Source: Proteus mirabilis ATCC 29906
Lineage (GTDB): Bacteria; Pseudomonadota; Gammaproteobacteria; Enterobacterales; Enterobacteriaceae
DNA length: 64,000 bases
Assembly: GCF_000160755.1 (NCBI RefSeq)
Contig: NZ_GG668578.1
Location: forward strand, 265,895 to 329,894
Direction: 5' to 3'
Positions 44,418-53,296 of this stretch are shown piece by piece (position 1 is the stretch's first letter; each line of letters opens with the position of its first letter). The position numbers were made by a program, and so were the translations under genes. The notes under the pieces are model-generated. The model had not been told where the DNA came from. It saw only the letters and a program-made list of their open reading frames with translations, and searched no databases.

Positions 44418-44529
44418 GGGTGGGGCCTTGCCAGCGACATCCCGGCACACACGACACCTGCCATGGCTGCTTCCTTCCGGACCTGACCGAGTTAACAAGT
44501 TAGTGTTGCGGGAGAACCAACAAGACCCC
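44418..44529 (-). ncRNA. ffs: 4.5S signal recognition particle RNA
   Basis: The minus strand shows the universally conserved SRP domain IV loop GGTCAGGTCCGGAAGG followed by AAGCAGCC, enclosed by a long hairpin whose closing arms are GGGGTCTTG... and ...CAAGGCCCC. About 112 nt, close to the 114 nt of E. coli ffs. It binds Ffh and guides membrane-protein insertion. Position between hha and tesB fits the E. coli order. Ends are approximate by 1-3 nt. Confidence 0.96.
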
Positions 44530-52496: not shown

Positions 52497-52500
52497 TCTG

Positions 52501-52620
52501 TCAAAAATGTGTTAGCTTTGTTTTCTGTGCGTTTACACGCGTAGCAGTTATTTTTAATTCGTGACCTGTTTGGTTGCTAATAAAGTCGTCGAAGCCGTGA
52601 TAACTAATTAACCAGTTGTT
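52501..52620 (-). pseudogene. Possible 3' gene fragment
   Basis: Thirty-nine open codons ending in TGA at 52501, reading ...NWLISYHGFDDFISNQTG and HELKITATRVNAQKTKLTHF. Codon composition looks coding but there is no start codon after the in-frame TAA at 52621-52623, and no homologue is recognised. It may be the tail of a gene lost when the adjacent element inserted or decayed. Confidence 0.3.
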
Positions 52621-52694
52621 TTACCCAGTTTTCCCCTGTGATTTTCTCCGCCCTGAAAACAACAGAGCGGGGAATTATTCTATACCAAAACCAA

Positions 52695-52847
52695 TTGACC
52701 TCCTCCATGCCCTAAAGGACGTGGCTCCCTACAGCGGTTCAGACCACAGTCTGACTCGCCTCGGTGGGTTCCTGCTTCAGCGAGTGGGCTGACTACTCCC
52801 TCCCTTACACAGGTAAGTACGGTATATCCTGCCGCTAATATGTTACG
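52695..52847 (-). mobile_element. Relic of IS200/IS605-family tnpB 3' end and right end (omega-RNA-like)
   Basis: The minus-strand frame from 52847 reads RNILAAGYTVLTC, matching the C-terminal block of TnpB proteins (NILAAGxAVxACG). It is followed by a structured stretch: ACTCGC/GCGAGT stem, CAGAC-TGTG-GTCTG hairpin, and a terminal hairpin around CGTCC-TTTA-GGGC ending GGAGGTCAA. This is the layout of IS605-type right ends, where the omega RNA scaffold ends just before its guide. No tnpA, no TnpB body and no left end are present. GC content is visibly above the surroundings. Confidence 0.65.
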
Positions 52848-52888
52848 ATCACCGATAGAATTAGACGGTTAACTGGATAACATCAATG

Positions 52889-53296
52889 CTAATCAGCAGA
52901 CTGGCGTACATACTCCAATTTTTCTCGTAACTGATCTGTAAGTGTTAATGCTTTTTTAGTATTGATATCAACGAGTACAAAAGTCACTAATGCATCTGAA
53001 ATCAATGCACCATCTTGTTTTCTCACTATTTTTTGAGACAACACGCCACTTTTAATACCGACTTCTGCAATATCACAACTAATGATTAGTTCATCGCCTA
53101 AATTAGCGGGCAAACGATAGTTGATATTAATATTCGCGACAACGAGTGCTAGACCATGCCGTTTAAACCAAGCGAGATCTAAGTGTTGTTCAATCCAATC
53201 CCATCTCGCTTGTTCTAAAAATTCAAGGTAACGTGCATTATTCACATGCTCAAAAACATCTAAATGGAATCCATAAACTTTAATTAATGTACTCAT
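52889..53296 (-). CDS. fadM: Long-chain acyl-CoA thioesterase FadM
   Basis: Hotdog-fold thioesterase of 135 residues resembling E. coli FadM/YbaW. The 4HBT motif is VFEHVNNARYLEFLEQARWDW; NINYRLPANLGDELIISCDI is the second block. It cleaves long-chain or dienoyl-CoA in oleate breakdown in E. coli. Between queC and ybaV as there. Confidence 0.93.
   Translation of the reverse strand: MSTLIKVYGFHLDVFEHVNNARYLEFLEQARWDWIEQHLDLAWFKRHGLALVVANININYRLPANLGDELIISCDIAEVGIKSGVLSQKIVRKQDGALISDALVTFVLVDINTKKALTLTDQLREKLEYVRQSAD

What the first reader, a model, noticed from the sequence alone, without database searches (positions are those of the whole stretch)
52683..52850. Stand-alone tnpB 3' end with an omega-RNA-like right end between queC and fadM
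The minus-strand frame reads RNILAAGYTVLTC, the C-terminal motif of TnpB nucleases. It runs into a GC-rich, hairpin-rich stretch ending in a CGTCC-TTTA-GGGC hairpin and GGTCAA, the form of IS605 right ends where the omega-RNA scaffold stops and the guide begins. No nuclease body or tnpA is present. If transcribed, the scaffold would carry the flanking sequence starting TTGGTTTTGGTATAG as guide and could be used by a TnpB encoded elsewhere, or could be a dead relic.
Basis: partly seen in the sequence, partly recalled or inferred. Interest (0 to 1): 0.72.

Follow-up and report, generated by a model that had tools for sequence, protein, structure and literature searches.

The report
Decayed TnpB jumping-gene stub beside fadM
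A stub of a common IS200/IS605 jumping gene, probably 182 bases long, sits just after the fadM gene of what is almost certainly Proteus mirabilis; its transposase gene and nearly all of its nuclease gene are missing, 7 of 45 paired positions of the predicted guide-RNA scaffold no longer match, and it is likely a dead relic rather than a working guide RNA.

Summary
The minus strand at 52853-52695 carries the last ~37 codons of tnpB and an omega-RNA/right end of an IS200/IS605-family element. It is 81-84% identical to the closest right ends in Proteus, Providencia, Klebsiella and E. coli; most E. coli copies are 60-80%. A likely left-end tip at 52880-52861 would make it a 182-bp internally deleted element, 12 bp after fadM.

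It does not look like a preserved guide RNA. It has two single-base insertions and breaks 7 of 45 consensus pairs (0-3 in 22 distinct relatives; random mutation gives about 9). It scores 122.7 bits against 168-184 for the 16 full-length references searched, all of which trained the model. It holds 3 of 28 differences between two P. mirabilis lineages over 6,168 bp (0.83 expected). None of 14 two-mismatch sites for the would-be guide follows the TTAT motif.

Another P. mirabilis strain has six full-length tnpB genes, and two copies probably sit in assembly gaps here, so use in trans is not excluded. Best reading: a dead, vertically inherited relic of a known family.

The parts
52889..53296 (-). 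fadM-type acyl-CoA thioesterase gene; the stub begins 12 bp after its stop codon, on the same strand
   Evidence: ORF; TIGR00051 YbgC/FadM family, 80.8 bits, above the cut-off 68.7
52877..52880 (-). TTAT, the likely original target/TAM beside the left end
   Evidence: TTAT precedes the left ends seen in H110, G000 C54, L041, L042 and L043
52861..52876 (-). likely remnant of the left-end tip (CCAGTTAACCGTCTAA); the left-end hairpin is missing
   Evidence: with TTAT, 16 of 20 positions of a pattern drawn from four left-end variants; joint best of all window positions, both strands. With one plain consensus it is not outstanding
52739..52853 (-). remnant of tnpB, about the last 37 codons, with a one-base insertion and a stop
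   Evidence: BLASTN to full copies and three-frame translation beside H110 TnpB
52695..52847 (-). decayed omega-RNA scaffold/right end
   Evidence: covariance model R1, 122.7 bits, full model length; HgcC sub-threshold match at 52682-52800
52705..52724 (-). subterminal right-end hairpin CCACGTCC-TTTA-GGGCATGG, with a C.A mismatch where 24 of 25 relatives pair C-G
   Evidence: pair 125-138
52679..52694 (-). would-be 16-nt guide TTGGTTTTGGTATAGA, host DNA after the right end
   Evidence: conservation among copies stops at GTCAA
51798..52496 (+). queC, convergent neighbour
   Evidence: NF008317, 454 bits

Best explanation
The feature is a likely dead, probably internally deleted stub of an IS200/IS605-family element (the E. 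coli insQ/TnpB kind) that lies just after fadM in what is almost certainly Proteus mirabilis. Inferred history: a full element inserted beside a TTAT site in the queC-fadM gap, a deletion removed tnpA (if it had one), almost all of tnpB and the left-end hairpin, and the remainder has been inherited vertically while drifting. Shown: homology to the right ends of full copies, absence of the nuclease body, frameshift and stop in the tnpB remnant, mismatches at predicted pairs, presence at the same place in three P. mirabilis sequences (two of them identical here), and absence from that place in the other Proteus genomes examined. Inferred: without the left-end hairpin TnpA could not move it; if it is transcribed at all, it would be as the 3' end of fadM mRNA, and TnpB from full copies would bind it poorly.
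For: Right-end homology. Frameshift and stop. Two single-base insertions, while 25 relatives align over 151 columns without internal indels. 7 of 45 pairs broken, against 0-3 (median 0) in 22 distinct relatives; random placement of the same substitutions breaks 8.7-8.8, and 7 or fewer in 23-26% of 5000 trials from each of three nearest relatives. 8 of 100 invariant columns changed, against at most 3 in leave-one-out relatives. 122.7 bits (H110 allele 115.7) against 168.0-184.2 for 16 full-length references. Fold z-score -1.12 against -2.54 for one copy with full tnpB. 3 of 28 inter-lineage differences fall in the stub, 0.83 expected. A 254-bp internally deleted derivative of the same family in H110 shows that such deletions happen.
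Against: The stub changes fewer invariant columns (8) than random placement gives (12.8-14.1; P 0.004-0.017). I read this as divergence from before its death, but weak remaining constraint would look the same. One of the 7 broken pairs (9-144) is also broken in two relatives. The references trained the covariance model, so they score high by construction. The left-end tip rests on 16 of 20 positions of a pattern that I widened after seeing several left ends; one other window site does as well, and with one plain 20-base consensus three places score better. The exact empty site could not be aligned.
Confidence: 0.9

Rival explanations
1. A stand-alone omega RNA used in trans: TnpB from full copies elsewhere in the genome would load the RNA read from the stub and cut alleles of this locus that lack the insertion, or another target.
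For: Six full-length tnpB genes with open frames in strain H110; two gapped copies in this genome; the covariance model still matches over its full length; fewer invariant columns changed than at random. A trans role for the gRNA of a frameshifted locus is suggested for TldR in PMC13418256 (passages).
Against: 7 of 45 pairs broken, including one in the subterminal hairpin; no promoter-like site on the minus strand in or just before the stub; none of 14 two-mismatch guide sites follows TTAT; no allele without the insertion was seen in P. mirabilis, but only three sequences were available; 3 of 28 inter-lineage differences lie in the stub.
Confidence: 0.04
2. The stub has been taken over as a host element, for example as a structured 3' end that stabilises or terminates the fadM transcript.
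For: It starts 12 bp after the fadM stop on the same strand and is GC-rich and hairpin-rich; it is kept in both P. mirabilis lineages.
Against: No terminator-like site was found within it; its fold is not clearly better than shuffles (30 of 200 as good); inter-lineage differences do not avoid it.
Confidence: 0.06

Closest known systems
IS200/IS605-family elements with insQ/TnpB (E. coli ydcM/insQ type; the ISfinder name IS609 is recalled, not tested)
   Same: Same tnpB 3' end, right end, terminal GTCAA and, likely, left-end tip beside TTAT
   Different: No tnpA, no tnpB body, no left-end hairpin; two insertions and 7 broken pairs in the scaffold
TnpB right-end RNA / omega RNA (ISDra2 reRNA; PMC8612924, passages read; PMC10278001, passages read)
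   Same: Same layout: tnpB 3' end, right end with a subterminal hairpin, then host-derived guide
   Different: No nuclease in cis; transcription and TnpB binding untested; scaffold decayed
Terminal-only (core-deleted) IS605-type elements and PATEs of Haloquadratum (PMC3119063, passages read)
   Same: Short, transposase-free, with ends like those of IS605-type elements
   Different: PATEs are mobile, multi-copy and keep near-terminal palindromes at both ends; the stub is single copy and has no left-end hairpin
HgcC RNA, Rfam RF00062
   Same: The stub (26.1 bits) and 5 of 7 related loci (26.5-30.7 bits) match the whole model; three of five HgcC RNAs detected in T. kodakarensis start inside transposase genes (PMC4247193, passages read)
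   Different: All scores lie below the gathering score of 50; two of seven related loci (L053, L071) did not match at E <= 0.1; HgcC is described from archaea

Membership tests
IS200/IS605-family element (remnant of) | Right end homologous to the ends of tnpB-carrying elements, with a subterminal hairpin | tested here: met
   BLASTN 81-84% to the closest copies; covariance model 122.7 bits
IS200/IS605-family element (remnant of) | Left end with subterminal hairpin beside a fixed target motif | tested here: inconclusive
   TTAT and a 16-of-20 left-end tip are present; the hairpin is absent
IS200/IS605-family element (complete) | Encodes TnpA and/or TnpB | tested here: not met
   Only about 37 frameshifted tnpB codons; no tnpA in the window
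Functional TnpB omega RNA | Scaffold keeps the conserved pairs | tested here: not met
   7 of 45 broken, against 0-3 in 22 relatives
Functional TnpB omega RNA | Transcribed, processed and bound by TnpB | not testable with these tools
   No RNA data at hand; no own promoter-like site found
Functional TnpB omega RNA | Guide has a target beside the TAM | tested here: not met
   In G000, which has N gaps, none of 14 two-mismatch sites follows TTAT. An allele without the insertion would be the natural target; none was available
PATE/MITE-like mobile derivative | Several copies and both near-terminal palindromes | tested here: not met
   Single copy of this derivative in G000 and in H110; no left-end hairpin
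HgcC RNA (RF00062) | Score at or above the Rfam gathering threshold of 50 bits | tested here: not met
   26.1 bits

The most novel reading that the evidence does not exclude
A solo omega RNA after fadM is still processed and loaded by TnpB from full copies of its family, giving P. mirabilis a chromosomal guide that cuts incoming or sister alleles lacking the insertion: a nuclease-less relic that keeps itself through another copy's nuclease.
Probability: 0.04. Interest if true: 0.6.

Novelty: new member of a known kind. Interest (0 to 1): 0.15.

Why it matters
As a relic it matters little: it explains a GC-rich, hairpin-rich stretch and warns against taking every right end for a working guide RNA. 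If it were active, it would show TnpB guide RNAs acting in trans from nuclease-less stubs in a bacterial chromosome. The weak match of Rfam's archaeal HgcC model to enterobacterial right ends is a small, testable annotation point.

Tried and rejected
Pfam PF07282 gave no hit in the own genome. I did not rely on it: the E. coli control did not ring either, although E. coli K-12 ER3413 carries insQ (the control strain is not named), so a full TnpB query was used. Rfam at gathering thresholds gave nothing at the site. At relaxed threshold, U7, snoR14 and RAGATH-18 matches had E 0.39-7.4 and were dismissed as chance. The flank 52497-52693 has matches only in the two P. mirabilis records of the plasmid collection and none in E. 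coli at E <= 0.01, so a second mobile element there is not supported. An alignment of the joined flanks with ten Proteus genomes did not locate the empty site. The first alignment of six full copies mixed orientations and was replaced. The display shows the wrong side of fadM for genomes with fadM on the minus strand (L011, L014, L017, L019, L021, and the own L010); absence there rests on the whole-genome searches. A weak model match in G011 (26.2 bits) lies beside what looks by eye like a different IS605-type element. Paper searches on stand-alone, trans-acting or PATE-borne TnpB guide RNAs, InsQ, TldR, HgcC and IS609 listed no paper on this locus; only open-licence papers are searchable, and Meers et al. 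2023, recalled as relevant, is not held.

Full report
WHAT IS THERE. On the minus strand, 12 bp after the stop codon of a fadM-type thioesterase gene and convergent with queC, lies a GC-rich stretch that reads RNILAAGYTVLTC and then runs through hairpins to GGTCAA.

WHERE IT COMES FROM. The window is almost certainly Proteus mirabilis: 6,140 of 6,168 bases around the site agree with strains H110 and H63, which are identical to each other there. The 168-bp query hits 1764 of 72,556 plasmid records, 4847 of 5426 E. coli genomes and 8 of 50,697 phage records. A transposase, insQ or TnpB gene lies under the match in 19 of 30 plasmid rows and in 20 of 20 E. coli rows shown; in K-12 it is insQ beside ydcO. 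Identity is 77-84% to seven loci fetched with flanks (L008, L009, L041-L044, and the two partial own copies at 83-84%), and 60-80% for most E. coli records. The homology covers about the last 37 codons of TnpB and the right end, and stops at GTCAA, where host DNA begins.

THE SAME FAMILY IN P. MIRABILIS H110. The record holds 8 right-end copies. Six go with a full-length tnpB in an open frame that carries D-, E- and D-containing motifs and two CxxC pairs; that these are the RuvC triad and zinc finger is recalled. One of the six has lost its left end (L058). The other two are a 254-bp internally deleted derivative with both ends (L053) and the stub studied here.

OTHER COPIES IN THIS GENOME. 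G000 has three right-end matches: the stub and two others, at C49 and C54. Both abut N runs, of 1491 and 1290 bases, and the C54 run has a left end on its far side. Full-length copies inside these gaps are probable but not seen. The assembled sequence shows only a 55-codon 5' tnpB fragment with three stops, at C52:86650-86814.

ANATOMY OF THE STUB. Intact left ends begin at TTAT, then CC and a short variable stretch up to CCGTAAAA, followed by a CCCCG...CGGGG hairpin. In the stub, TTATCCAGTTAACCGTCTAA at 52880-52861 fits 16 of 20 positions of a pattern drawn from four left-end variants; one other place in the window fits as well. With one plain consensus it is not outstanding: 10 places fit 12 of 16, and three beat it over 20 bases. 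I take it as the likely left-end tip because it lies at the right place and in the right orientation. The hairpin is missing, and the join to tnpB would lie near 52854-52860. The element would then be 182 bp, 52876-52695. The tnpB remnant has a one-base insertion after LTC, and the original frame resumes behind a stop as SLKQEPTEASQTVV*.

IS THE SCAFFOLD ALIVE? Twenty-five right ends from Proteus, Providencia, Klebsiella, Serratia, Tatumella, E. coli and phages align over 151 columns without internal indels. Not all of their tnpB genes are intact: L042 is annotated as frameshifted and L053 is a deletion derivative. They share a predicted 45-pair consensus, 6 pairs of which show changes on both sides with the pair kept. 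The stub has two insertions and breaks 7 of 45 pairs; the 22 distinct relatives break 0-3, with a median of 0. One of the 7 (columns 9-144) is also broken in two relatives. When the substitutions that separate the stub from each of its three nearest relatives are placed at random, 8.7-8.8 pairs break on average, and 7 or fewer in 23-26% of 5000 trials, so the pairing looks unselected. Against this, the stub departs from 8 of 100 invariant columns where random placement gives 12.8-14.1 (P 0.004-0.017). I take this as divergence from the time when the parent element was still active, but weak residual constraint is not excluded. A covariance model scores the stub at 122.7 bits (H110 allele 115.7) and the 16 full-length references given to the search at 168.0-184.2; these had trained the model. 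The stub folds no better than many shuffles (z -1.12, 30 of 200 as good), the one intact scaffold tested better (z -2.54, 0 of 200). Between window and H110, 3 of 28 differences in 6,168 bp fall in the 182-bp stub, against 0.83 expected by length; the numbers are small.

GUIDE AND TARGET. The 16 nt after GTCAA are TTGGTTTTGGTATAGA. In G000 no second exact or one-mismatch site was listed; 14 sites have two mismatches and none of them follows TTAT. Matches at up to three mismatches (70 and 66 on the two strands) outnumber those of the reversed control pattern (47 and 50); I read this as composition, untested, and the three-mismatch sites were not checked for TTAT. A natural target would be an allele without the insertion; none was seen, but only three P. 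mirabilis sequences were available.

DISTRIBUTION. Of 19 other genus genomes, two (G003, G008) have a right end, about 91 kb and 705 kb from their fadM; none has it at queC-fadM. Ten named Proteus genomes lack the right-end core motif within 3 kb of fadM; some may be the same assemblies as among the 19. The insertion is thus probably particular to P. mirabilis and older than the split of the two lineages compared.

TRANSCRIPTION. The scan found no minus-strand promoter-like site in or just before the stub (the nearest, weak, lies within fadM) and no terminator-like site within it. If transcribed, it would be as the 3' end of fadM mRNA. This is inference.

COMPARISON WITH THE KNOWN. The layout equals that of ISDra2 reRNA: about 150 nt of tnpB 3' end plus right end, then about 16 nt of host DNA (PMC8612924, passages). 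TnpB can process its own mRNA to such an RNA (PMC10278001, passages). Core-deleted, terminal-only IS605-type elements and PATEs are described in Haloquadratum (PMC3119063, passages). A possible guide RNA in trans from a frameshifted locus is mentioned for TldR (PMC13418256, passages). The stub is a new member of a known kind. Rfam's archaeal HgcC model matched the stub and 5 of 7 related loci at 26-31 bits, below its threshold of 50. Since three of five HgcC RNAs detected in Thermococcus kodakarensis start inside transposase genes (PMC4247193, passages), some HgcC RNAs may be omega RNAs; I did not test that.

VERDICT. Real, correctly recognised, and most likely dead. Interest is low; the in-trans reading stays possible at about 4% because full-length nucleases of the same family are present in the species.

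Noticed in passing
L053 1398-1651 (P. mirabilis H110, right end at record 338972-339122): A 254-bp internally deleted derivative of the same element with both ends and left-end hairpin; the same site in G000 (C49) has a 1491-base N run beside the right end, so a full copy may sit there.
   Followed up: partly
RF00062 matches: window 52682-52800 (-); L008 1542-1664; L048 1545-1664; L041, L042, L043: Rfam's archaeal HgcC model matches enterobacterial tnpB right ends over its whole length, below the gathering score; HgcC and TnpB omega RNAs may overlap as families.
   Followed up: partly
G000:C52:86650-86814 (-), L070; H110 record 940374-940541, L061: A 55-codon 5' fragment of a tnpB with several stops, in this genome and in H110: another old relic.
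   Followed up: no
G000:C51:295800-296153 (-), L006: An IS200-type Y1 transposase gene with one internal TGA, the only Y1 match in the assembled genome.
   Followed up: no
NZ_OL790811.1 and NZ_OL790812.1 (plasmid collection): Two 4.1-Mb records labelled as plasmids that hold queC, fadM and their surroundings: evidently P. mirabilis chromosomes.
   Followed up: no
L151 (G011:C1:2389023-2389142 and flank): A different IS605-type element whose right end matches the covariance model weakly (26.2 bits).
   Followed up: partly
window 44426-44522 (-): Bacterial small SRP RNA, 70.5 bits, the only Rfam match above threshold in the window.
   Followed up: no
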